34,914 nucleotides of DNA from Corallococcus carmarthensis (GTDB lineage Bacteria; Myxococcota; Myxococcia; Myxococcales; Myxococcaceae). Location of the stretch: positions 1-34,914 of the forward strand of contig NZ_RAWE01000094.1 of assembly GCF_003611695.1 (NCBI RefSeq), read 5' to 3'. This document shows, in pieces, positions 19,124-29,609 of the stretch. Position 1 is the stretch's first letter, and every line of letters starts with the position of its first letter. The position numbers and the translations under genes were made by a program. A model generated the notes under the pieces. That model did not search any database and was not told the DNA's origin. It was given only the letters and a program-made list of their open reading frames with translations.

Positions 19124-21499
19124 CTACTTCTCCAGCCGCGACACCATGCCCCACAGGCCGTCGAAGGTGGCGTTGCCCACCTGATGCAGGCCGAAGCCCC
19201 AGAGAAAGGCGGTCATCCACCCACCGGAGCCGCCCCAGGTGGGAGCGAAGACGTCCAACACCTGGAGCCCCAGCAGCACCGCGATGATGGACATCATCCC
19301 CAGCACCGCCAGCTCCACCTTCCACAGGTCGCGCGAGCGCGGCAGGGGAATCCAGTCCAGGCTCACCAGCACGTCGGTGCTCGTCTTCGTGGACGACGGC
19401 GGTAGGGGCGAGAGGTTCCCGCTGGCGGGTCCGCCGGGCAGCGGAGGCGGCGGTGACTGCACGGGTGGCTGCGAGAAGGGGTCCAGCGTCACGGCGGAGG
19501 GGACGGATTCCATGGCCATCCGGCCACCCATGGCGACCGGGGGCGGCGCGGGCGTGATGTGGCGTGCGAAGTCTTCACGGGCGGCGCGGTACTCCGGCGC
19601 GGCCAGGTTCGCTTCGCCCTTGTCCAGGTGCGCTCGCGCCGCGGCCAGCCGCGCGTCCACCTCCGTCTGCCAGTCCTCGAGGGCGTGCAGCCCGCCACCA
19701 GCCTGGGCCTGGAGCTGCGTCAGCGCCTCTTCCAGGTTGTCCACCAGTTCTCGCAGGTACAGCGCGTGCGCGGACTGGTAGTAGAGGAACGCCTCGTCCA
19801 CGCTGGCTTGCATGCGAGCCCGCGCCCGGGCCAGCTGTTCGCCCACGCGCAGGCGCAGCGCCGCCCACTCCTCCTGACTGAAGCCACCGGGCAGCTCCTT
19901 CGTGGTGAGGGCGTCCTCCAGGTCCGTCAGGAGGATTTCGAGGAACGCCTCGCGCGCGGTCTCCACCAGCCGGCGCGACGCCTCCAGGTCGGGCCCCGGC
20001 AGCTGCTGACGCGCCCGCAGCACATACAGGGGCAGCTCGCCCTGGAGCCGGCGGCTCACCGGATCATCCCCGCGCTGGGAGGCCAGCGTCCGCGACTGCT
20101 GCTCCAGCTCCGTCAGCCGCGCCTCCAGCACCGCGCGGGCCACGGCCTCCAGGTCGAGCGTGCGCAACAGCTGCGCCTGTTCGCTGAAGTCCGCGGACGT
20201 GGCCTCATCGTTCTGGAGCAGCGTCTCCACGGCCTTGAGCTTGCGCTCCGAGTCCAGCAGCGCCACGCCCTTGAGTCCCTCCAGCTGCCGCAGCAGGACG
20301 GACCAGAGGGAGAACAGCTGGAGGCGCGCCTCGAAGAGGGCGAGCACGGAGTCCTGCACGACGAGCCCGCTCAGCGGCCGCTGGATGTCCGCGAGGAGCG
20401 TATCCACCTGACGGCGCAGCGACGCGGCCACGGCGGCCTCGCGCTCCAGCGGGCGGGCGGGCACCAGCGATTGCAGCTTCTGGCGTGCGGCCTCCGCGCG
20501 GCTGCGCAGGTTCACGCGCGGGCGCACGCGCTGCACGTAGAAGCGCACCGCCGCGGACGTCACCACGCCCAGGAAGATGAGGAACGCGCCGAACATCGCG
20601 GGCGTCTTCACCCAGACGGTGAAGGACTGCTCCACCGCCGCGCCCTCCGGCACGAGCAGCCGCACCGTGCCGGTGTATTCGCCAGACTCCGGCAGGTCGC
20701 CCACGTCCAGGCTCAGCAGGCCGGTGCCGTAGGCGGGCACCTGGAGGACGCCCTCCTTGCCCGGGCCCTGCGGCTGGCCGTCCGGTCCGCGGAAGAACCA
20801 CTTCGCGTCCTGCGCCTGCACGGGCGCCGCGCCATCCCCCGTGCCGCCCGCCTTGCGGTCCAGTTGCACCACCGCCGCGGGCCCCACCTCGCCGCCCACG
20901 CCCGCCGTCTCCCGGAAGGTGAGCCGCACCGTGGCCTTGCCGGAGAAGGGCCCCAGCGTCCAACCCCGCGCGGGCGCCACCGGATAGAACTGCACCGTGG
21001 GCGCCGCGGACACCCGCTGCACGACGAGCGGGGTGACCTCCCGCGCGCCGTCGCCCAGGAGCACCACGCGGCCCTGGTAGTCACCCGCCGCGGGCAGATC
21101 CGCGGACAGCGTCACCGACACGGGCTGCCGCACGGAGATGGGCACGTCCGCCGCGCCTTCCGCCGTTCCCACGCGCACCGTCACCGGCACCTGCGTGCCG
21201 TCCGCCGCGAGCAGCGGATCCACCAGCACCGTCACCCGCGTGGCCTCCGCGGCCGCGTCGCGCGGTGAGTCCGGAGACGCGTCCGTGGACGAGGGCAGCA
21301 GGTCCACGCGCAGCACCGTCTCCAGGTGGGCGGTGGACGTGCGCAGACGCAGCTGGTTGTTGGAGGACAGGCCCGCGAGGCCGAAGCGCGGCGCCGCGTC
21401 CGCGAGCACGGGCAGCATGCAGAGCACGGCGCACGCCAGCGTCATGCCTGCGCGGAGCAGGACCTTCGCGGCCATGAAGCATCGAGCGGGAAGGCTCAT
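19124..21499 (-). CDS. Large membrane protein with exported beta domain and long helical region
   Basis: About 791 aa, no family recognised. Seen in order: an N-terminal signal sequence (hydrophobic core ending in ADA before APRFG); about 280 residues of beta-sandwich-like sequence with repeated GDYQGRV / GEYTGTV strands, probably two Ig-like domains outside the membrane; a membrane segment (FGAFLIFLGVVTSAAVRF, about 305-325); about 300 residues of Leu/Ala/Arg/Glu-rich helices, probably coiled coil; a Pro-rich linker; and a C-terminal hydrophobic hairpin (about 730-785). The start could be 21499 or 21475; no good ribosome site decides it. It follows the EAD-trypsin gene by 91 nt on the same strand and may share its transcript. 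A scaffold role across the inner membrane is possible, but inferred only. Confidence 0.8.
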   Translation of the reverse strand: MSLPARCFMAAKVLLRAGMTLACAVLCMLPVLADAAPRFGLAGLSSNNQLRLRTSTAHLETVLRVDLLPSSTDASPDSPRDAAAEATRVTVLVDPLLAADGTQVPVTVRVGTAEGAADVPISVRQPVSVTLSADLPAAGDYQGRVVLLGDGAREVTPLVVQRVSAAPTVQFYPVAPARGWTLGPFSGKATVRLTFRETAGVGGEVGPAAVVQLDRKAGGTGDGAAPVQAQDAKWFFRGPDGQPQGPGKEGVLQVPAYGTGLLSLDVGDLPESGEYTGTVRLLVPEGAAVEQSFTVWVKTPAMFGAFLIFLGVVTSAAVRFYVQRVRPRVNLRSRAEAARQKLQSLVPARPLEREAAVAASLRRQVDTLLADIQRPLSGLVVQDSVLALFEARLQLFSLWSVLLRQLEGLKGVALLDSERKLKAVETLLQNDEATSADFSEQAQLLRTLDLEAVARAVLEARLTELEQQSRTLASQRGDDPVSRRLQGELPLYVLRARQQLPGPDLEASRRLVETAREAFLEILLTDLEDALTTKELPGGFSQEEWAALRLRVGEQLARARARMQASVDEAFLYYQSAHALYLRELVDNLEEALTQLQAQAGGGLHALEDWQTEVDARLAAARAHLDKGEANLAAPEYRAAREDFARHITPAPPPVAMGGRMAMESVPSAVTLDPFSQPPVQSPPPPLPGGPASGNLSPLPPSSTKTSTDVLVSLDWIPLPRSRDLWKVELAVLGMMSIIAVLLGLQVLDVFAPTWGGSGGWMTAFLWGFGLHQVGNATFDGLWGMVSRLEK

Positions 21500-21590
21500 G
21501 CGCAAGGACGATAGCAGTCCCCTCCCCCGGCCCCGCATGTTCGTCCGCGCGCGGAGCCGAGGACGAATCACAGGCGTGTAGCAGGCGCGT

Positions 21591-22628
21591 TCAGTACCAG
21601 CCCAGGCGGCGCAGCACGTTGGCGGACAGGCTGGCGCGGATGGTGTCCAGGGGGATGCCTTCGTCGTCCTCGGCGGCTTCGTGACCGGGGCGAGGGTCTC
21701 CGCTGTGGTGCAGCGCCACCAGGTCCAGGTCCGGCGTGAAGCACGGCGACCCGGACGAGCCCGGGTGCGTGTTGGTGCAGTACGTGACGCGCGTGTGTGA
21801 ACGGTTGACCGCCTGGAACGTGTCCAGCGCCACCTGCATGGGCCGGCCCTTCGGGTGCTGCACCACGAGCGCCAGCGCGCCGGGCGCGAACGCCGTGGAC
21901 GGCGACGGGGCCAGCGGGATGAAGCCGCGCGGCCGGTCCCCCAGCCGGTCCTCGCCGGGGGCGTCCTGGATCTGCAGAAAGGCGTAGTCCAGTTCGTCGC
22001 GCGTGGCCTCGCGCGGACGCGGATGCATCAGGTCCGCCGGGCTGTGCGGGCTCTGCGCCAGGCACGCCGTCACCGCGTACACCCGGCCCGGGTGCACCGC
22101 GATGCGGTCCGGCAACACCTTCAGGTCGAAGCGCACGCGCAGCGCCTCCAGCAGCCGGTGCTCGATGACGTGCGAGTTCGTCAGCACCACGTCCGGCGCC
22201 ACCAGGAAGCCCGTGCCCAGCGCGCGGCCCCCTTCCAGCTCCACGCGGCACACGCGCCGCGACAGCAGGGTCAGCCGGTCGCGCCAGACCTCCGGCGTCA
22301 TCGCCAGCCTGGACTGTTGGACGATGCGCGCCAGGGCACTGCCAGGCACGCTGCGTTGCACGGAGGACAGGTAGCTCTGCAGGAAGCGGCGGATGCGCGG
22401 ATGGCCCGGCGCCGCCGCGTGCGCGCCGCGCACCAGCACGTCCGTCCACCCCTCCGCCTCCGCGGTGCGCACGAGCGCCCGGGCCCGCGCCGGCCCCTCC
22501 CACTCGACGGGGGGCACCAGGCTGCGGCCGCATTTCACCTCGACCATCCGGTGGAGTTCCTCCACCGAGGTGAACGCGCCCAGGAGGGCGTGGGTCAGTT
22601 CCTCCTGTTCGGAGCCTTCAAGCTCCAT
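21591..22628 (-). CDS. Trypsin-like serine protease with N-terminal effector-associated domain
   Basis: 345 aa. Residues about 7-85 match the EAD1 pattern: ELTHALLGAF, a Met-Val pair then basic/acidic helix, a WTDVLVRGAHAAAPGHP helix-turn and RRFLQ. EADs are small adaptor domains of bacterial conflict systems that pair like with like to recruit effectors. Residues about 120-345 are a trypsin-like domain with a full triad: His153 (TNSHVIEH), Asp214 (ELDYAFLQI) and Ser292 (GSSGSP), plus the VALHHSG segment typical of EAD-linked proteases. There is no signal peptide, so it acts in the cytosol. The start is well fixed by AGAGGA about 6 nt upstream. Its direct neighbours are a split macroglobulin upstream and a large membrane protein downstream. 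No second EAD protein was seen in the window. Confidence 0.9.
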   Translation of the reverse strand: MELEGSEQEELTHALLGAFTSVEELHRMVEVKCGRSLVPPVEWEGPARARALVRTAEAEGWTDVLVRGAHAAAPGHPRIRRFLQSYLSSVQRSVPGSALARIVQQSRLAMTPEVWRDRLTLLSRRVCRVELEGGRALGTGFLVAPDVVLTNSHVIEHRLLEALRVRFDLKVLPDRIAVHPGRVYAVTACLAQSPHSPADLMHPRPREATRDELDYAFLQIQDAPGEDRLGDRPRGFIPLAPSPSTAFAPGALALVVQHPKGRPMQVALDTFQAVNRSHTRVTYCTNTHPGSSGSPCFTPDLDLVALHHSGDPRPGHEAAEDDEGIPLDTIRASLSANVLRRLGWY

Positions 22629-22837: not shown

Positions 22838-25210
22838 TCAGCGCACCGCCCAGGTGGAAGGCGGCAGCGACGCGGTGATGTCCGGACGGCCAGGCACGCC
22901 CAGCCGCGCCGCGCCCGCCTGCAACGTCCCGGCGAGCGTGGGCAGCACGCGGAACTCCACCTGCACCGGCGCGCCCTGCTCCCTTGGAGCCAGGTCCAAT
23001 GACAACGCACCATCCTGCACGTCCCAGCCGGTCACCTGTCCGGAGGACACCAACGCGTCCAGGCTCGCGGGATCCACCTGCACGCCCGCGGGCAGGTCCT
23101 GTTCGAAGCGCAGCGGCAGCAAGGAGGGCGCGCCCACCTGGACCCGCATGTTCGCCAGCTGTCCCACGCGCGCCTCCTTCGGCCCCGTCACGGCCAGCTG
23201 CAGCCCGCCCCGGGTTTCGCTCTTCCACGGCACCGCCGCGGACAGCGCCAGCGAGAAGCCCAGCCCCGGCACCGCGGGCTCCGCGCGCACGGTCCACACG
23301 TGCGTCCCCGCGGAGCCCGGCGCGGCGGCCTCCAGCGCCAGCACCTCGCGCAGCGCCTTCGTGTCGTAGGTGCCTTCGGTGACGACCTGTCCGTCGCGCG
23401 CCACCGTCACGCGCACCTGGGCAGGCAGCGGATCCTTGAAGAGGGCCAGCGCCGCGCGCAAGCCCACGCGGTTCGCCTGCCCATCCCCCCAGCCCAGGCC
23501 CGGCGTGTAGTGCGCGAGCAGCCAGGCCCCCAGGTCCGCGAGCGGCGCCTTCGCATCACCCTGGAGGGCGAGCACCGCCATCGCCGTGGCCTCCGCCGCC
23601 GAGGGCACCTGCCCGTCCGCACGCACCGTGTCCTGCTCCACCGGCAGCCACGCGCTGCCGTCCGGGCCGGACTTGAGCGCTTCGCGCACGCGGGTGCGCA
23701 GGGCGTCCGCCACGCTGCCCTCGGCCGCGCCCTCCGCCAGCAGCACCGCCGCCGTGTAGCCGTCCTTCACCTGCGGCAGGTAGCGCTCGAAGACGCCCGA
23801 CGCGCGCACGCTGAAGGCCGCCGCGCGCTGCTTGCCCTCCGGGGTGACTGACGCGGCGCGCACCGTGCGGGCGCAGTCCGCCGTCGCCACCAGCAGCCGC
23901 TGGAGCGTCCAGCCATCCCCGCCCTGGCAGGTGCCGTCCGGCCGCTGCGCCTGGGCCACCTGCGCCACCAGCCGCTCGCCCAGCCGCGCGAGCACCGGGT
24001 TGTCCGGGTGGGCCAGCGCGCCCTCCGCGATTCGCGTCGCCACGTCCACCGACGGCGCCCGCGCCGCACGCAGCACCCGCTGCGTCGCCACCAGCGCCAG
24101 CGCCTTCATCACCGCGGGGTCCGCCGTCTCACCCAGGGCCTTGAGCAGCTGCGGCGCCTGGCCCGCGAGCAGCAGCGCGTACGCGTCCCCGGCCACGTCC
24201 ACCGGCCGGCGCTCCACCGCCGCCAGCTCCGCGCGAATCACGCCCAGCGCGCCCGGGAACACCTGCAAGCGGATCCGTTCGCTGCCGGCCTGCGCGTCCG
24301 CGGGTCCATTCAGGGACAGCGTGCGCGGCGCCGCCAGCGAACCGCCGCGCGTCTGGACCACGGGCTGCCCGGTGGCCCACACGTCGAAGTCGCGCACCAC
24401 CGCGTCCGTGTCCCCCAGCGAGGCGCGCACCGTCACCGGCCCCGCGCCTCCGGCCTTCACCGTCACCAGTTCCACCACGCTGCCGCGCGCCGGCACCCGC
24501 ACCGTGCGCGTGCCGGCCTCCACCTGCGCTCCCTTCACGTCCAACTTGAGCGCGGCCTCCACCGCCTTGTCGGTGGTGTTCACCACCTGCACCGGCAGGC
24601 GCACGGTGTCGCCCGCGCGCAGGAAGGGCGGCAGCACCGGATCCACGTACGTGGGCAGCGTGCCCGCGAAGGACGTCACCGCCCCCGCCTGCGCGCCGGA
24701 GCGCGAGTGCGCGAGCGCCAGCACCCGCCACTGCGTCAGCCGGTCCGGCACGCGCACCGGCACCGTCGCCACGCCGTTCGCGTCCGTCACCACCAGGGGT
24801 TCGAAGAGGAACGTCTCCGGGAACCACGCGCGGGTGGGCGCGGCCGCGCCGCCCTTGTCCTTGATGCCGCCCTCCTTCGCATCCACCTCTTGCTCCGGAG
24901 GTGCCGCCATTTCGGCCACGGGCGCCGCGGCGGGCATCGGCGGAGGTTCGGCACGGCCGCCGCCACCTCGCGACCCGACCTGCTCGTCGTACGAGTTCGC
25001 CGAGCCGAAGCTCTTCATCGTCTTCTTCAGGGCGCCAGACGCCTCGCCGTCGAAGACCCCTCCCGGCGCCGCATTCCCCGCGAGCGCGGCGGCGGACTGT
25101 CCCATGGTGCGGCGGATCAAATCCCCCGCCACCAGCGCGAGCGTCATCCCGCCCAGCACGAACCCCACCCCGAGGCCCACGGCCCCGGACATCCACGAGC
25201 GCTGCTTCAT
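22838..25210 (-). CDS. C-terminal half of a split alpha-2-macroglobulin
   Basis: 790 aa. An N-terminal membrane anchor (about residues 8-29) is followed by a Gly/Ala/Pro-rich linker. The A2M middle domain begins at about residue 127 with the hallmark RAWFPETFLFEPLVV and ends in LTQWRVLALAHS. Next come MG-type beta domains, a helical stretch matching the thioester-domain toroid (about 330-620), and a C-terminal receptor-like beta domain. At the place of the usual P-x-GCxEQ thioester the sequence reads ERRPVDVAGDAYALL, so no thioester can form, as in YfaS-type bacterial macroglobulins. The ATG overlaps the stop of the preceding N-half gene by 4 nt (ATGA), implying coupled, equimolar synthesis. 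The protein probably faces the periplasm, anchored in the inner membrane. Confidence 0.88.
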   Translation of the reverse strand: MKQRSWMSGAVGLGVGFVLGGMTLALVAGDLIRRTMGQSAAALAGNAAPGGVFDGEASGALKKTMKSFGSANSYDEQVGSRGGGGRAEPPPMPAAAPVAEMAAPPEQEVDAKEGGIKDKGGAAAPTRAWFPETFLFEPLVVTDANGVATVPVRVPDRLTQWRVLALAHSRSGAQAGAVTSFAGTLPTYVDPVLPPFLRAGDTVRLPVQVVNTTDKAVEAALKLDVKGAQVEAGTRTVRVPARGSVVELVTVKAGGAGPVTVRASLGDTDAVVRDFDVWATGQPVVQTRGGSLAAPRTLSLNGPADAQAGSERIRLQVFPGALGVIRAELAAVERRPVDVAGDAYALLLAGQAPQLLKALGETADPAVMKALALVATQRVLRAARAPSVDVATRIAEGALAHPDNPVLARLGERLVAQVAQAQRPDGTCQGGDGWTLQRLLVATADCARTVRAASVTPEGKQRAAAFSVRASGVFERYLPQVKDGYTAAVLLAEGAAEGSVADALRTRVREALKSGPDGSAWLPVEQDTVRADGQVPSAAEATAMAVLALQGDAKAPLADLGAWLLAHYTPGLGWGDGQANRVGLRAALALFKDPLPAQVRVTVARDGQVVTEGTYDTKALREVLALEAAAPGSAGTHVWTVRAEPAVPGLGFSLALSAAVPWKSETRGGLQLAVTGPKEARVGQLANMRVQVGAPSLLPLRFEQDLPAGVQVDPASLDALVSSGQVTGWDVQDGALSLDLAPREQGAPVQVEFRVLPTLAGTLQAGAARLGVPGRPDITASLPPSTWAVR

Positions 25211-28200
25211 GGCGCCTCCCGGGCGACCCACGCGCCCCAGTTCACGACGTCCTCCGGCAACCGCGTTCCATTCACCACCACCGCGCGCGGATCCGTCAGG
25301 GCCAGCAGGTCCTGCGGCAGGCGAGACAGCCGCAGCTTGCGGCCGAACGCATCCGTCACCTTCTGTCCGCGCTGCTCGCAGGCGGCGAGCGACTCCGCCC
25401 ACAGCCGCGCGAGCCCCGCCGGGTCCAACGTCTCACCCGAGGGAGCAGTCTCCTCCCACTTGCGCGTGCGCGCGTGCAGCTCCGTCAGCACCGCGTAGAA
25501 GGGCTCCGTCAGCTCCGCGTCCGGAGAGAAGGGGCTGGTGGCGTTCGCCGACAGGGGCGTCTCCATGTCCTCCAACGTAGGCACCGCCGTCACGCGCAGC
25601 AGCGCCGCCGCGGCCGCGTTCGCGCCCCGGATGCGCCCCATGGCCAGCGCCTGGCCATCCAGCACGCCAAAGGCCGGAGTCGCCACCGACGGCGCGGGCC
25701 GCAGCCCATCCAGCGCATCCGCGCCCGGCAGCGGCGCCAGCTGGGCGAGCGTCTCATCCACGCCGAAGAGACCCACCGCCGCCTCGCCGTCCTTGCCGTC
25801 CACGCGCGTGCGGACCTGGAGGTGCGCCAGCTCTCCGGGCGCGTACGCGGACTTGTCCGGCGACACCTCCACCGACAGCGCCGCGCGAGGCGCCACGTAC
25901 ACGCGCGCGGTCGCCGTCCCCCCCTCCACCTCCGCCCAGCCCTCGAAGTCCTTGGGCAGCGTGAAGCGCGCCGAACGCGTGGCCGGATCCATCATCTCCT
26001 TGAGCCGCGCCTGCCCCGCCACCAGCACCAGCGTCTTGGGCAGCTCGCCCGAGAAGCCGGGGCCGCGCAGCAGCTCCACCTTCACGGACTCGCCCGCCTT
26101 CGCCAGCACCGGCGTCACGCGGGCGCGCAGCGGCGGCAGGCGCGCGGGGCGCAGCACGAACTTCGTCTCGCCCATGTCCTGGCCGTCCCACTTGGCGCGG
26201 ACCTTCAACTCGTAGCCCAGGAACGTGGTGGCCTGGGGCGGGCGGGGCACGCCGTTTCCGCCATACGTGGGCTGCGCGATGAAGCGCACCACGCCCATGG
26301 CCTCCGACGGCCTCCGTCCCGACTGGAGCTCCGCCTGCGTCGAGGCCGGCACGCGGATGCGCGCGAAGCGCTCCTTCACGCACGCCAGCACCGTCGCCGG
26401 GAGCGCGTCTTCCCGCGCGGGCTCCTGCACCCAGGACAGCGTCAGCTCCGGCTTGTCCGCCCACCGCCGCCAGGTCATCGCGGCGGGCAGGGCCACCGCG
26501 CGGTCCAACGTGGGGGGCAGACACGCGCGCGCATCCAGCACGGCGGTGGTCAGCCCCTCGTTCAGGCCCTCCTCGTCACCGAAGGCGGCCGCCGTGTTCC
26601 ACCGCAGCGAGGGCAGGCCCGGATCCATGGCCTGGAAGCGCAGCTGGAGCATCCGCTCCGCGCCCGCCGGCAGCCCCTTCGCGCGCAGCGCCGACGCCAT
26701 GCACGCGTCCAGCCCCTCCTCCGCGCCGGCCACGTCCAGCACCTGCCCGGACGCGCCCACCCGCACCGCGAACTCCGCCATGGCGGCGCCGGAGGACGGA
26801 TCGACGAAGCGCGCACAGGGATGCAGCACCGGCAGCATCCGCTCCAGCGCCAGCTGATCCTCCAGCGACGACTGCCCCGCCTGCGCGCTCAACAGGTCCC
26901 GCGACGCCACGAGCGACACGGGCGGCCGCCGCGGCTGCACGCGCACCGGCAGCGGCGGCACCACCACGTTCACCGCGGGGCCGGGATCCAACTGGAAGGC
27001 GGCCACGCCGTCCTCGTCCGCCACCGCGCTCACGCCCTGGTCGCGAGGGTCCCACGCACGCGCCACCGTCACCTCCGCGCCCGGCAGCACCTGCCCCGAG
27101 GCGGTGGTGGCGCGCAGGTAGACGCGGTTGCTGAAGCCCGCCACCAGCCCGTCCTCCAGCTCCGTCACGGAGGACACGGCCAGCGCGTCCTCGGACAAGA
27201 GGAGCGACACGGCGCCGCGCACCGGCTCGCCCGTGGGGTCCTTCGCCTCCACGTTCGCGCTCAGCGTGGCCTGTCCGCGCAGGTCCTGGGGCACGCGCGG
27301 CAGCGTCACGCGGAAGCGGCCGGAGGCATCCGTGCGCGCCTTCGTCGGCAGCTCCCCCCGGAGCCACTCCGTCGGAGGGGGCCATGCGCCCGCGTGGCTC
27401 CACGCCAGCGTCACGTCCGTGTCCGCCACCGGCGCGCCGGACGCGTACGACACCTGTCCCGTCACCTCCGGCGTGTCGTTGGCGCGCCAGAACGGCCGGG
27501 GGCTCTTCGCCTCCAACCGCAGGCGCGGCAGCGTGAAGGGCTCCACCGTGAAGGTCTCGGAGCCCTCCGCGCCGCCGCTCGACCACGCCACCGTCCACGT
27601 GCCCGTGGGCGCGCCGCGGTCCAGCGGGAAGTCCCCGGCCACCACGCCCCAGTTGCCCGCGGGCGCGCGCTCCTCCAGCACCACCTCGCCGGAGGGATCC
27701 GTCACCTTCCACGTCCCCGGCCTTCCATCCAGCGGCGACAGGTCCTTCGCGCGCAGGGCCACCGCGCGGAAGCGCACCCGGTGCCCGGGCTCATAGAGGG
27801 GCCGGTCCGTCAGCACGCGCACCCGCGCGGGCGCGTACAGGGGCAGCGGTGAGTCCACCATGCCGGCGCCCAGCGGCGTGGTGACGCGTGCGCGCAGCTG
27901 GTAGTCGCCGTCCGGCACCTGGGGCAGCGTCACCGGTGCCGACAGGTAGCCTGGATCGCCGCGCGACCAACTGGCTTTGGCGTCCAACGGCAGCGGCGTC
28001 TCCTTGCCGGATGCGTCCACCAGGAACAGCGCCGCCGTGCCCCGGACCACGGGGGAGTGGAGCTCGCCTCCCTCCGTGTCCACCCCGTGCGCTTGCGCCG
28101 AGACGGTCACCTGCGCGGAGTGACCTCGCGCGAGGCCGCTGGCGTACACGCTCACCGTCTGGCGGAACTCGCCGTCCGGACACGAGGGCGCGTCCACGCC

Positions 28201-28317
28201 CTGGAACATCCAGGCGGACAGACACCGCCCGGAAGCCAGATAGGTCAGGCCTCCGCCCACGAGCAACAGCCCGAGCCCCCTGGCCACCCATCGCCGTCGC
28301 TGGATGCCACCTGTCAT
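25207..28317 (-). CDS. N-terminal half of a split alpha-2-macroglobulin (MG2 and bait-region domains)
   Basis: 1036 aa. A membrane anchor (about residues 10-30) is followed by beta domains. A clear MG2 domain starts at about residue 163 (VRVLTDRPLYEPGHRVRFRAVAL), then further MG domains. At about 490-690 lie two Cys-containing stretches (LPVLHPCARF...LDACMASAL and LDARACLPP...VLACVKERF) that recall the C-terminal module of myxobacterial AgmX/TonB-like proteins; this reading is tentative. A bait-region-type domain follows (about 810-870, DKSAYAPGELAHLQVRT and VGLFGVDE). The last 170 residues contain DAFGRKLRL and DPRAVVVNGTRLPEDVVNW. The protein stops where a normal macroglobulin would run into the A2M domain, which is the next gene. 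GGGGAG precedes the ATG by about 8 nt. It is divergent from the 395-aa gene. Confidence 0.87.
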   Translation of the reverse strand: MTGGIQRRRWVARGLGLLLVGGGLTYLASGRCLSAWMFQGVDAPSCPDGEFRQTVSVYASGLARGHSAQVTVSAQAHGVDTEGGELHSPVVRGTAALFLVDASGKETPLPLDAKASWSRGDPGYLSAPVTLPQVPDGDYQLRARVTTPLGAGMVDSPLPLYAPARVRVLTDRPLYEPGHRVRFRAVALRAKDLSPLDGRPGTWKVTDPSGEVVLEERAPAGNWGVVAGDFPLDRGAPTGTWTVAWSSGGAEGSETFTVEPFTLPRLRLEAKSPRPFWRANDTPEVTGQVSYASGAPVADTDVTLAWSHAGAWPPPTEWLRGELPTKARTDASGRFRVTLPRVPQDLRGQATLSANVEAKDPTGEPVRGAVSLLLSEDALAVSSVTELEDGLVAGFSNRVYLRATTASGQVLPGAEVTVARAWDPRDQGVSAVADEDGVAAFQLDPGPAVNVVVPPLPVRVQPRRPPVSLVASRDLLSAQAGQSSLEDQLALERMLPVLHPCARFVDPSSGAAMAEFAVRVGASGQVLDVAGAEEGLDACMASALRAKGLPAGAERMLQLRFQAMDPGLPSLRWNTAAAFGDEEGLNEGLTTAVLDARACLPPTLDRAVALPAAMTWRRWADKPELTLSWVQEPAREDALPATVLACVKERFARIRVPASTQAELQSGRRPSEAMGVVRFIAQPTYGGNGVPRPPQATTFLGYELKVRAKWDGQDMGETKFVLRPARLPPLRARVTPVLAKAGESVKVELLRGPGFSGELPKTLVLVAGQARLKEMMDPATRSARFTLPKDFEGWAEVEGGTATARVYVAPRAALSVEVSPDKSAYAPGELAHLQVRTRVDGKDGEAAVGLFGVDETLAQLAPLPGADALDGLRPAPSVATPAFGVLDGQALAMGRIRGANAAAAALLRVTAVPTLEDMETPLSANATSPFSPDAELTEPFYAVLTELHARTRKWEETAPSGETLDPAGLARLWAESLAACEQRGQKVTDAFGRKLRLSRLPQDLLALTDPRAVVVNGTRLPEDVVNWGAWVAREAP

Positions 28318-28421: not shown

Positions 28422-29609
28422 ATGGTCGCGCCGAAGAACCGTCCTCCGCAGGATGCCCTGCCGCCCCGTCTCGATGCCCTGCTCGAGGCCTTGATGGACC
28501 GCGACTTCGCGGCGCGGCTGCGCAAGGTCTACCAGGCGGCCGCCGTCGCCATCGACCGGCTGGGACACCTGAGCATCGTGAAGTACGAGCCCACCACCGC
28601 CGAACCCGACGACGCCGCGGACCTGTCGTTGTGGGAGACGATGGCGCCCGCCATCGGCGAGACGCTGGTGGACGTGAACCGGCTGGTGGTCGCCATCCGC
28701 GACGCCTTCCCTCCGCCCGCGCGCCCCGCCGCTTCGAACGACGGCGGCTGGGCCCCGCCTCCCGCGAGCTCCGATGAGCGCCTGTCGCAGGAAGCAGAGG
28801 CCGTGCTGCACGCCAGCGCGGAACGGCTGTCCAAGCGCGTGCAGGAGCTGGGCGTGCAGATGCGCCGGCCGGAGGTGGTGAGCGACCGCTGGACGCTCAT
28901 GTCGGAGCTGGCCGCGTCGCGCGCGGACTTCCGCAACCGCATCGGCGACCTCGTGTACCTCACCGCCGCCGCCTTCGCGGACGTGCGCCGCGAGGACGTG
29001 GTGCCCGGCTACGCGAACCAGGTGGGCGCGCGCGTGGCCCTGCGAGGCGCGGCGGCGGACCTGCGCCGCTCACTGCAGGGACGGCTGGAGCGCGCCGCGA
29101 AGGCGACGGATGCGCAGCGGCCCGCGCTGGCGAGGCAGGCCGAGGAGAGCCTGGCCGCGTTCGTGTCCCTGCCCGCGTCGCTCGCGCTGAAGACCCCCAC
29201 GAAGCGGGAGATCGTCGCGGCGCGAGGCCGGCTGCGCGAAGCGGGCTCGCAGACAGCGCTGGGGCCGGACGTGCTGCCCGGACTCGTGGAGCCCTTCCTC
29301 GCGCTGCTGGACGAAGCGATGGAGGAGCTGACCCGCACGTGGCTCACCGTGCACGACCGCGCGGTGTGGGCGGCGAGCGGCGTCCGGCTGGAGCAGGTGG
29401 ACATGCACCTGGAGCTGGGCTCCCCCGGCGCGGCGCGAGTCCTGGAGGAGGCGGTGACGGCGGCGGGAGCGCTCTCGGGCCGCTCGGCGCCCTTCGACGC
29501 CTTCCTGCGCAAGGGCCGTCAGGAGGCCTCGGCGGGGCTCAACGAGGCCGGGACACGCGACCTGCTCGCCCGCTTCCGCGAGCGGCTGTCCAGCCTGCCG
29601 TTCAGCTAG
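28422..29609 (+). CDS. Helical cytosolic protein of unknown function
   Basis: 395 aa, no family recognised. Almost entirely helical by pattern: Ala/Leu/Arg/Glu-rich with no cysteine, signal peptide or membrane segment, and a short Pro/Ser-rich linker at about residues 98-115 dividing a small N-terminal helical domain from a longer one. The even spread of Arg and Glu suggests coiled-coil bundles. The start is supported by the TAGGGTGA just upstream and by loss of coding character before it. It is divergent from the macroglobulin pair (104-nt gap) and ends at a strong hairpin shared with the convergent 96-aa gene. Confidence 0.8.
   Translation: MVAPKNRPPQDALPPRLDALLEALMDRDFAARLRKVYQAAAVAIDRLGHLSIVKYEPTTAEPDDAADLSLWETMAPAIGETLVDVNRLVVAIRDAFPPPARPAASNDGGWAPPPASSDERLSQEAEAVLHASAERLSKRVQELGVQMRRPEVVSDRWTLMSELAASRADFRNRIGDLVYLTAAAFADVRREDVVPGYANQVGARVALRGAAADLRRSLQGRLERAAKATDAQRPALARQAEESLAAFVSLPASLALKTPTKREIVAARGRLREAGSQTALGPDVLPGLVEPFLALLDEAMEELTRTWLTVHDRAVWAASGVRLEQVDMHLELGSPGAARVLEEAVTAAGALSGRSAPFDAFLRKGRQEASAGLNEAGTRDLLARFRERLSSLPFS

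What the first reader, a model, noticed from the sequence alone, without database searches (positions are those of the whole stretch)
22838..28317. Alpha-2-macroglobulin split into two membrane-anchored halves
The MG2 and bait-region-type domains are in one gene, the A2M middle domain, thioester-domain-like toroid and receptor-like domain in the next. Each half has its own N-terminal membrane anchor, and the genes overlap by ATGA. In ordinary macroglobulins the bait region lies at this point and is cleaved by the target protease; here the chain is already divided in the genome. The thioester CxEQ is absent. Seen directly: domains, overlap, anchors, missing motif. Inferred: the halves assemble into one complex that responds to proteases without bait cleavage, or has another envelope role.
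Basis: partly seen in the sequence, partly recalled or inferred. Interest (0 to 1): 0.72.

Follow-up and report, generated by a model that had tools for sequence, protein, structure and literature searches.

The report
Two-gene, membrane-anchored bacterial macroglobulin
Myxobacteria encode a relative of alpha-2-macroglobulin and complement C3 as two overlapping genes cut at the protease bait region, each half with its own predicted membrane anchor and without the usual thioester; the cut is old and conserved, so it is a real two-chain design and not a sequencing error.

Summary
Half 1 (25207-28317, -; 1036 aa) carries MG1 to the first part of MG6; half 2 (22838-25210, -; 790 aa) the rest of MG6, MG7, CUB, TED and a receptor-like domain. 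They overlap by ATGA behind GGGAGG; each begins with a hydrophobic segment; CxEQ is absent. It is not a frameshift: the same 4-base overlap occurs at 65 distinct junctions, down to about 37% identity and in finished chromosomes; none of the 79 best half 1 loci is fused. Split half 2 sequences form one group (64 rows, SH-aLRT 100); 64 of 64 that cover the place lack the thioester, which 47 of 48 other macroglobulin ORFs have. Fold alignment puts the break between E. coli ECAM residues 924 and 964 (bait disordered at 923-942) and at the beta/alpha boundary of complement C3, where two chains share MG6. I therefore expect an obligate two-chain complex. The half 2 anchor looks like a transmembrane helix (46 of 65), a lipobox (17) or unclear (2), followed by a variable, disordered linker at the bait position. 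Assembly is likely; a protease-linked role is inference. New variant of a known kind.

The parts
25207..28317 (-). half 1 gene (1036 aa): N-terminal anchor, MG1-MG5, first part of MG6, C-terminal helical appendix; the C3 beta-chain equivalent
   Evidence: ORF; Pfam MG2 E 2.1e-19; AlphaFold model pLDDT 84.9, pTM 0.58; residues 134-912 on a C3 beta chain 69-622, Z 16.2, rmsd 7.0, 449 aligned
28231..28287 (-). half 1 hydrophobic N-terminal segment (residues 11-29), predicted membrane anchor
   Evidence: hydropathy, helix 4-29 in the model
27544..27816 (-). MG2 domain (residues 168-258)
   Evidence: Pfam PF01835; 32 of 32 members of alignment A2
26242..26886 (-). insert (residues 478-692): two AgmX/PglI-like repeats with two pairs of invariant Cys
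   Evidence: hhalign with nine AgmX/PglI tails of the own genome: E 2.4e-6 and 6.3e-4; four control segments 0.048-0.21; C501, C539, C599, C646 invariant in 18 of 18
25684..25974 (-). first part of MG6 / tail of A2M_BRD (residues 782-878)
   Evidence: alignment to E. coli ECAM 385-924 ends at residue 878
25210..25680 (-). conserved, mostly helical C-terminal appendix of half 1 (residues 880-1036)
   Evidence: conservation, helices in the model; origin not established
25215..25220 (-). GGGAGG, Shine-Dalgarno-like, four bases before the half 2 start
   Evidence: SD-like motif at 26 of 26 junctions examined
25207..25210 (-). ATGA start/stop overlap
   Evidence: 65 distinct 4-base junctions over
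22838..25210 (-). half 2 gene (790 aa): anchor, linker, rest of MG6, MG7, CUB, TED, receptor-like domain; the C3 alpha-chain equivalent from MG6 on
   Evidence: ORF; Pfam A2M E 5.1e-16; AlphaFold model pLDDT 80.0, pTM 0.65; 130-790 on TEP1 609-1307, Z 28.3
25124..25189 (-). half 2 hydrophobic N-terminal segment (residues 8-29)
   Evidence: hydropathy 2.07; 46 TM-like, 17 lipobox-like, 2 unclear of 65 by hydropathy and motif
24836..25120 (-). variable disordered linker at the bait position (residues 31-125)
   Evidence: pLDDT under 50 over nearly all of it; 28% mean pairwise identity (residues 46-124) against 57-70% for the body, 26 sequences
24545..24814 (-). A2M domain PF00207 (second part of MG6 and start of MG7)
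23426..24250 (-). TED (alpha-alpha toroid, residues 321-595)
   Evidence: fold: C5 TED Z 23.1, C4d fragment Z 21.6
24188..24211 (-). place where CxEQ stands in fused relatives; four residues lacking
   Evidence: alignment of 65 half 2 (one truncated before this place) with 6 fused relatives
22841..23233 (-). C-terminal receptor-binding-like domain (residues 660-790)
   Evidence: fold alignments reach residues 785-790

Best explanation
This is a constitutively two-chain macroglobulin made by one old gene fission. The two genes are translated together (ATGA overlap with an internal Shine-Dalgarno), both products are exported and held at a membrane by their own N-termini, and they assemble around a shared MG6 domain, as the beta and alpha chains of complement C3 do. 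The thioester was lost on the same stem of the tree, so it cannot trap a protease covalently. What is left of the bait region is the variable linker that ties half 2 to its anchor; I think the complex stands guard at the envelope, holding or sensing proteases or other attackers non-covalently, and that cutting this linker would free the TED arm from the membrane. Shown: fission, conservation, single origin in the sample, thioester loss, position of the break by fold alignment. Strongly inferred: assembly, membrane anchoring. Weakly inferred: protease contact and the linker as a bait.
For: Junction: TGA overlapped by ATG or GTG in 26 of 27 loci and 55 of 79, 65 distinct after removing 16 contigs held twice; in the 79, four more have TGATG and two a gap of 0 or 2 bases; none is fused. 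Finished single-contig genomes show it (G005, G009, G013, G022). Break point: half 1 ends at ECAM 924 and C3 622; half 2 starts at ECAM 964 and C3 743; ECAM bait residues 923-942 lack density (passages of PMC4498604); C3 beta chain 1-645, alpha 650-1641, half of MG6 from each (passage of PMC4974347). In the lone half 2 model the MG6 part (128-158) has no strand and pLDDT 50-74 by blocks, as expected if half 1 supplies the rest. Tree: 64 split rows, one change, SH-aLRT 100, beside 10 fused rows. Thioester: 0 of 64 against 47 of 48. An anchor is kept though its kind changes. MagD cut at its bait stays together as two pieces, and holds a protease without a thioester (passages of PMC5764988).
Against: No co-fold or pull-down. 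Half 1 fits solved relatives domain by domain only: its Foldseek TM-scores over the whole chain are low (0.19-0.32 of the query, rmsd 15-45), and its model pTM is 0.58. The half 1 anchor is weakly hydrophobic in the window. Missing strands in the half 2 model could also be a flexible edge. Its native-like TED packing (TM 0.51-0.58 against most native chains, 0.23-0.26 against C3b) comes from a lone chain. Linker variability can simply mean a spacer. The 79 loci are the best of 90 confirmed and were found with a half 1 query, so more distant or fused forms rank below them. No partner gene was found to travel with the pair beyond family-level synteny.
Confidence: 0.5

Rival explanations
1. Two-chain complex with a structural or scaffolding role in the envelope, not protease-linked: the macroglobulin frame carries the AgmX/PglI-like domains as adaptors, and thioester and bait function are both gone.
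For: Thioester absent in 64 of 64; the insert with two AgmX/PglI-like repeats and invariant cysteines; the body is far better conserved than the linker.
Against: MagD, a Type II macroglobulin without thioester, still holds a protease (PMC5764988 passages); the linker keeps a bait-like composition and place.
Confidence: 0.3
2. The halves work apart, each with its own partners, and operon overlap only sets equal dosage.
For: Each half has its own anchor; no interface was computed.
Against: The break goes through MG6, a single domain in solved relatives; of 79 loci, 61 have half 2 directly behind half 1, 13 run out of contig 1-481 bases after half 1, and 5 have a broken or displaced half 2 frame.
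Confidence: 0.1
3. Sequencing error, frameshift or decaying gene.
For: One MAG contig (L102 = L113) has a broken half 2 frame, and four more of the 79 loci (L159, L167, L182, L185) have half 2 broken or displaced.
Against: Overlap and start conserved at 65 junctions, SD-like motif at 26 of 26, finished chromosomes among them.
Confidence: 0.01
4. The split is a maturation shortcut: the complex behaves as an already-cleaved (activated) macroglobulin.
For: The chain is open at the place where cleavage activates E. coli ECAM (PMC4498604 passages).
Against: C3 has the same chain division and is not active until its anaphylatoxin is removed (established knowledge; chain limits in PMC4974347); the half 2 model resembles native rather than cleaved states, though from one chain.
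Confidence: 0.15

Closest known systems
Complement C3 (two-chain beta/alpha thioester protein)
   Same: Chain break at the same place; half 1 aligns to C3 beta chain 69-622 and half 2 to alpha chain 743-1475; MG6 shared by both chains (passages of PMC4974347 and PMC7768046).
   Different: C3 is one gene, cut after translation (established knowledge), with an anaphylatoxin at the junction, a C345C domain and a thioester; here the division is in the genes, nothing aligns to C3 623-742 or beyond 1500, there is no CxEQ, and each chain has its own predicted anchor.
Bacterial Type II A2M (P. aeruginosa MagD; E. coli YfaS from recall)
   Same: No CxEQ; MagD is periplasmic, inner-membrane associated and binds partner proteins (abstract and passages of PMC5764988).
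   Different: MagD is one chain with a bait region that is cut, in a six-gene operon; here two genes and two anchors. The mag partners were not searched for.
Bacterial Type I A2M (E. coli ECAM/YfhM, Salmonella Sa-A2M)
   Same: Overall fold (4u48 Z 20.7, 5a42 Z 20.1 for half 2).
   Different: Single chain, CxEQ thioester, PBP1c neighbour (passages of PMC4498604, and PMC5764988).
Fused myxobacterial A2M of the sister group (L087-L091, L095 type in the tree; L226-L245 by similarity)
   Same: The ten in the tree are the nearest rows to the split group; the motif after the anchor of many half 2 (R..FG.SA.ALAG) also follows the last helix in L089 and L090.
   Different: One chain; CxEQ in the six compared and in 17 of 20 more (the other 3 have TGA at the Cys); the bait zone holds other inserts, in several cases two or more hydrophobic helices.

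Membership tests
alpha-2-macroglobulin superfamily | MG2 and A2M (PF00207) domains | tested here: met
   MG2 E 2.1e-19, A2M E 5.1e-16, both over cut-off
alpha-2-macroglobulin superfamily | TED toroid between CUB and MG8 | tested here: met
   AlphaFold model against C5 TED Z 23.1 and whole chains Z about 20-28; Pfam's TED model did not match
Type I (thioester) A2M | CxEQ motif in the TED | tested here: not met
   absent in 64 of 64 half 2 that cover the place; four residues lacking there
Type I (thioester) A2M | PBP1c gene next to it | tested here: inconclusive
   10 window ORFs scanned with Pfam, none a transpeptidase or transglycosylase; not all window ORFs were scanned
Type II A2M (MagD-like) | macroglobulin without CxEQ | tested here: met
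Type II A2M (MagD-like) | one chain with an internal bait region | tested here: not met
   two genes at 65 distinct junctions, none fused in the 79 best half 1 loci
Type II A2M (MagD-like) | mag operon partners | not tested
   no search with MagA/B/C/E/F was made; recurrent neighbours were looked for by ORF similarity only
complement C3/C4/C5 | two-chain division within MG6 | tested here: met
   by fold alignment of each half; a joint MG6 itself was not modelled
complement C3/C4/C5 | anaphylatoxin and C345C domains | tested here: inconclusive
   alignments leave C3 623-742 and everything after 1500 without counterpart; not searched separately
AgmX/PglI C-terminal domain (NF033768), for the insert only | profile match over cut-off | tested here: not met
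   no match in the window copy at E<=1; 1 of 32 members of A2 at E 0.046; hhalign support E 2.4e-6 / 6.3e-4, so 'like' only

The most novel reading that the evidence does not exclude
A macroglobulin in which the membrane has taken the place of the bait loop. Membrane anchors or helix bundles stand at the bait point in several members of this pair of groups (the split pair with a TM or lipid anchor; fused relatives with several helices there, some with a cytoplasmic anti-sigma-like zinc motif). The split pair would be a protease or envelope-damage sensor in which cutting the linker of half 2, not the main chain, releases the TED arm from the membrane.
Probability: 0.22. Interest if true: 0.8.

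Novelty: new variant of a known kind. Interest (0 to 1): 0.62.

Why it matters
It gives a bacterial, genetically tractable counterpart of the two-chain complement C3, with the division encoded in the genes and the thioester gone. Because the halves come as separate proteins, the old question of what the bait region holds together can be tested without proteases: express one half, both, or the pair with a released linker. In myxobacteria, which live amid secreted proteases, it points to an envelope system whose half 1 is present in 86 of 195 sampled Myxococcota genomes. I found no paper on it in the listings, which cover only the held open-licence library, and of which searches listed only part of their hits (25 of 30, 15 of 732, 15 of 140).

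Tried and rejected
Frameshift or sequencing error: rejected. Partner gene that travels with the pair: the EAD1-trypsin ORF and the 815-aa ORF beside it each match in 29 of 105 loci (about 17 contigs are held twice among the 105, and many loci are too short to tell), but a gene on the far side (28422-29609) matches in 27 of 105, so this is family-level synteny; no shared neighbour was made out in the 54 more distant loci, where the ORF clustering is noisy because antisense frames of the pair and of its flanks fill it. Origin of the half 1 C-terminal appendix from the DPFG-type domain found in the bait zone of fused relatives: hhalign gave probability 0.8%, E 0.074, not supported, although DAFGR aligned to DPFGQ; the MG6 part of the longer query aligned at E 4.1e-9. 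AgmX/PglI insert: a first hhalign used wrong strands and is void; repeated. The two repeats against each other were not alike (probability 1.2%). NCBIfam found nothing in either half. Direct fold comparison of the insert alone was not possible (structure jobs used). Which came first, helix bundle in the bait or split, stays open: the sister group holds both kinds and the tree is midpoint-rooted, quick search, SH-aLRT only, with some long end branches. Literature: (and 79, 90 for side findings, 86 for C3); the 2004 survey of bacterial A2M that I recalled (10.1186/gb-2004-5-6-r38) is not held, so an earlier mention of the split there is not excluded. Passages of PMC3328433 were seen and not used.

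Rows dropped: half 1 of L076 (contig starts inside it) from A2 and A3; half 2 of L102 (broken frame) from all half 2 sets; half 2 of L132 (runs out of contig before the thioester place) from the tree and from the 64; A3 took 18 of 27 half 1 sequences; 16 loci that are the same contigs as loci or 17 were counted once for the 65. In one search, 6 of 54 loci gave no A2M match to the half 2 profile and are not in the 48, which come from genomes near the window's and are not a random sample.
Full report
What is there. The window lies in a Corallococcus-like genome (contigs of same-genus genomes have the lengths of the C. exercitus, C. interemptor and other Corallococcus contigs named). On the minus strand, half 1 spans 28317-25207 (1036 aa) and half 2 25210-22838 (790 aa). 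Pfam finds MG2 in half 1, a weak A2M_BRD tail at residues 805-859, and A2M in half 2 at 133-222. The genes share ATGA at 25207-25210, with GGGAGG four bases before the ATG.

Is it real. The pair was followed in 27 loci (the window and 26 relatives): in 26 the TGA of half 1 is overlapped by the start of half 2 (25 ATG, 1 GTG); the exception, L102, has a broken half 2 frame. An SD-like motif stands before the start in 26 of 26. A pattern scan of the named species-genome collection with a half 1 alignment gave 90 confirmed relatives, of which the best 80 (79 distinct loci) were kept; they are named Corallococcus, Myxococcus, Pyxidicoccus, Archangium, Hyalangium, Citreicoccus, Kofleriaceae and other Myxococcota or 'Deltaproteobacteria' MAGs, with a few odd labels. 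Of these 79: 55 have the exact 4-base overlap; 4 have TGATG (L165, L176, L179, L180); L134 and L154 have gaps of 0 and 2 bases; 5 (L113, L159, L167, L182, L185) have half 2 broken or its first start far off; 13 run out of contig 1 to 481 bases after half 1; none is fused. Sixteen of the 55 repeat contigs, so the distinct 4-base junctions number 65. The lowest half 1 identity among loci with the 4-base overlap is 37% (L175). In a sample of 195 Myxococcota genomes 88 have a match to half 1 at E<=1e-30; two of them (G062, G063) only through a fused gene, leaving 86. Half 2 was not sought in that sample.

Where the break is. AlphaFold models (half 2 pLDDT 80.0, pTM 0.65; half 1 84.9, 0.58) were laid on solved structures. 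Half 2 residues 130-790 cover TEP1 609-1307 (Z 28.3, rmsd 6.6, 626 aligned); 128 or 129 to about 790 cover A2ML1 731-1454, C3 743-1475, Salmonella A2M 956-1643 and ECAM 964-1652. Half 1 134-912 covers a C3 beta chain 69-622 (2a74, Z 16.2, rmsd 7.0, 449 aligned) and 163-878 covers ECAM 385-924 (5a42, Z 13.8, rmsd 11.4). As one rigid body half 1 fits poorly (Foldseek TM-scores 0.19-0.32 of the query), so this is a domain-by-domain match. The ECAM bait residues missing from density are 923-942 (passage of PMC4498604). In C3 the beta chain is 1-645 and the alpha chain 650-1641, and half of MG6 comes from each (passage of PMC4974347; MG6 shared by both chains also in a passage of PMC7768046). So the gene break is the C3 chain break, inside MG6. 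In the lone half 2 model the MG6 residues have pLDDT 50 to 74 by blocks and no strand from 128 to 158, while from 171 on the blocks are 76 to 96: what one expects of a domain missing its partner strands, although a flexible edge would look the same.

One origin, one loss. A tree of 64 split half 2 and 48 fused rows puts the split rows on one side of a branch (SH-aLRT 100), next to ten fused rows (L087-L091 and five of the L095 type; 96 and 99) (quick search, midpoint root, long stem 1.91). No half 2 of 65 has CxEQ anywhere; 64 cover the place, and there four residues are missing against the six fused relatives compared, all of which have GCxEQ. Of 48 other macroglobulin ORFs 47 have CxEQ; of 20 more, 17 have it and 3 have a TGA at the Cys. 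The window's own genome has five more A2M genes, all in one frame. Fission and thioester loss thus fall on the same stem in this sample; the order is unknown.

Anchors and linker. Of 65 half 2, 46 start with a TM-like segment, 17 with a lipobox-like one, 2 are unclear (hydropathy and motif only). Of the ten earliest-branching rows 8 are of the lipobox kind, 1 unclear, 1 TM-like. So the kind of anchor changes but an anchor is kept. RxWFPE, the start of the body, begins at about residue 97-190 (median 126; 64 sequences). The stretch before it (from residue 46) is 18% Ala, 17% Gly, 10% Pro, with almost no Cys; in 26 sequences its mean pairwise identity is 28%, against 70% (MG6-MG7), 66% (TED) and 57% (MG8). 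AlphaFold gives it pLDDT under 50. This stretch stands where the bait stands. That it is cut by proteases is inference.

Half 1 extras. Residues 478-692, not covered by the matches of fused relatives to half 1, look like two AgmX/PglI tails: E 2.4e-6 and 6.3e-4 against nine tails from the own genome, four control segments 0.048 to 0.21. NCBIfam's own model matches only 1 of 32 members at E 0.046. C32, C46, C501, C539, C599 and C646 are invariant in 18 of 18, fitting an exported, disulfide-bonded protein. The C-terminal 150 residues are conserved and mostly helical, of unknown origin.

How it may work. MagD of Pseudomonas, also without thioester, is cut in its bait by chymotrypsin, trypsin and papain, the two pieces stay together in gel filtration, and TEV protease stays bound to a MagD with a TEV site in the bait (passages of PMC5764988). 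A macroglobulin divided at that point can therefore be a stable object, and the pair here looks like such an object made directly by translation. I put assembly at about 0.85, membrane anchoring of half 2 at about 0.85 and of half 1 at about 0.7, and a protease-linked guard or sensor role at about 0.4; the joint statement gets 0.5 because its last step is marked as weak.

Context in the relatives. Fused members of this wider group fill the bait zone with other things: three or four hydrophobic segments in L087, L089, L090 (3 of 48 ORFs) and two or more in L226, L239, L240, L241 (4 of 20), or a DPFG-type domain. In L089 and L090 the last helix is followed by GDN(I/L)RR(M/L)F..S.DS(I/L)AG, close to half 2 of Myxococcus (GDNVRRLFGASAEALAG). 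The bait zone looks like a favoured place for membrane segments here; the split would be one outcome.

Verdict. It remains a variant of a known kind.

Noticed in passing
L226 (G063:C449), L236 and L238 (G062:C438): Three fused macroglobulins have an in-frame TGA exactly at the thioester Cys codon (PGG-TGA-FEQ), 3 of 3, with a small predicted hairpin behind it (-8.5 to -10.9 kcal/mol, no shuffle control). Both genomes hold tRNA-Sec (75.8 and 77.9 bits, anticodon TCA by ARAGORN) and SelB over cut-off; but all 8 genomes searched, the window's own included, have tRNA-Sec over cut-off, so that is not specific. Candidate selenocysteine in place of the thioester cysteine; a four-term literature search listed 10 papers, none on this by title.
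   Followed up: partly
L087, L089, L239, L240, L241: Fused macroglobulins with several hydrophobic segments in the bait zone and an N-terminal cytoplasmic-looking zinc motif (HxxxCxxC); zf-HC2 by Pfam in L087 only (E 7.9e-7; 1 of 4 scanned), motif seen in L089 and L239-L241. Possible anti-sigma factors with a macroglobulin ectodomain.
   Followed up: partly
window 21591-22628 (-) and 19124-21571 (-): Behind the pair lies an EAD1 plus Trypsin_2 protein and an 815-aa ORF without Pfam match; both recur in 29 of 105 loci, as family-level synteny.
   Followed up: partly
L227-L235, L237, L242, L243 and others: A DPFG-like motif followed by a GPDE-like and a DD motif, reminiscent (recalled) of type II secretion pseudopilins, sits in the bait zone of many fused macroglobulins.
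   Followed up: partly
L106 (G039:C1): An ordinary CxEQ-type A2M lies in two overlapping ORFs of 1260 and 775 aa, probably a frameshift; it groups away from the split family in the tree.
   Followed up: no
L156 ('Comamonas sp. KCTC 72670') and L185 ('Rhodobacterales' MAG): Records labelled as non-myxobacteria hold myxobacterial-type genes (L156 sits next to M. xanthus in the tree; L185 has half 1 at 37% identity); likely mislabelled or contaminated.
   Followed up: no
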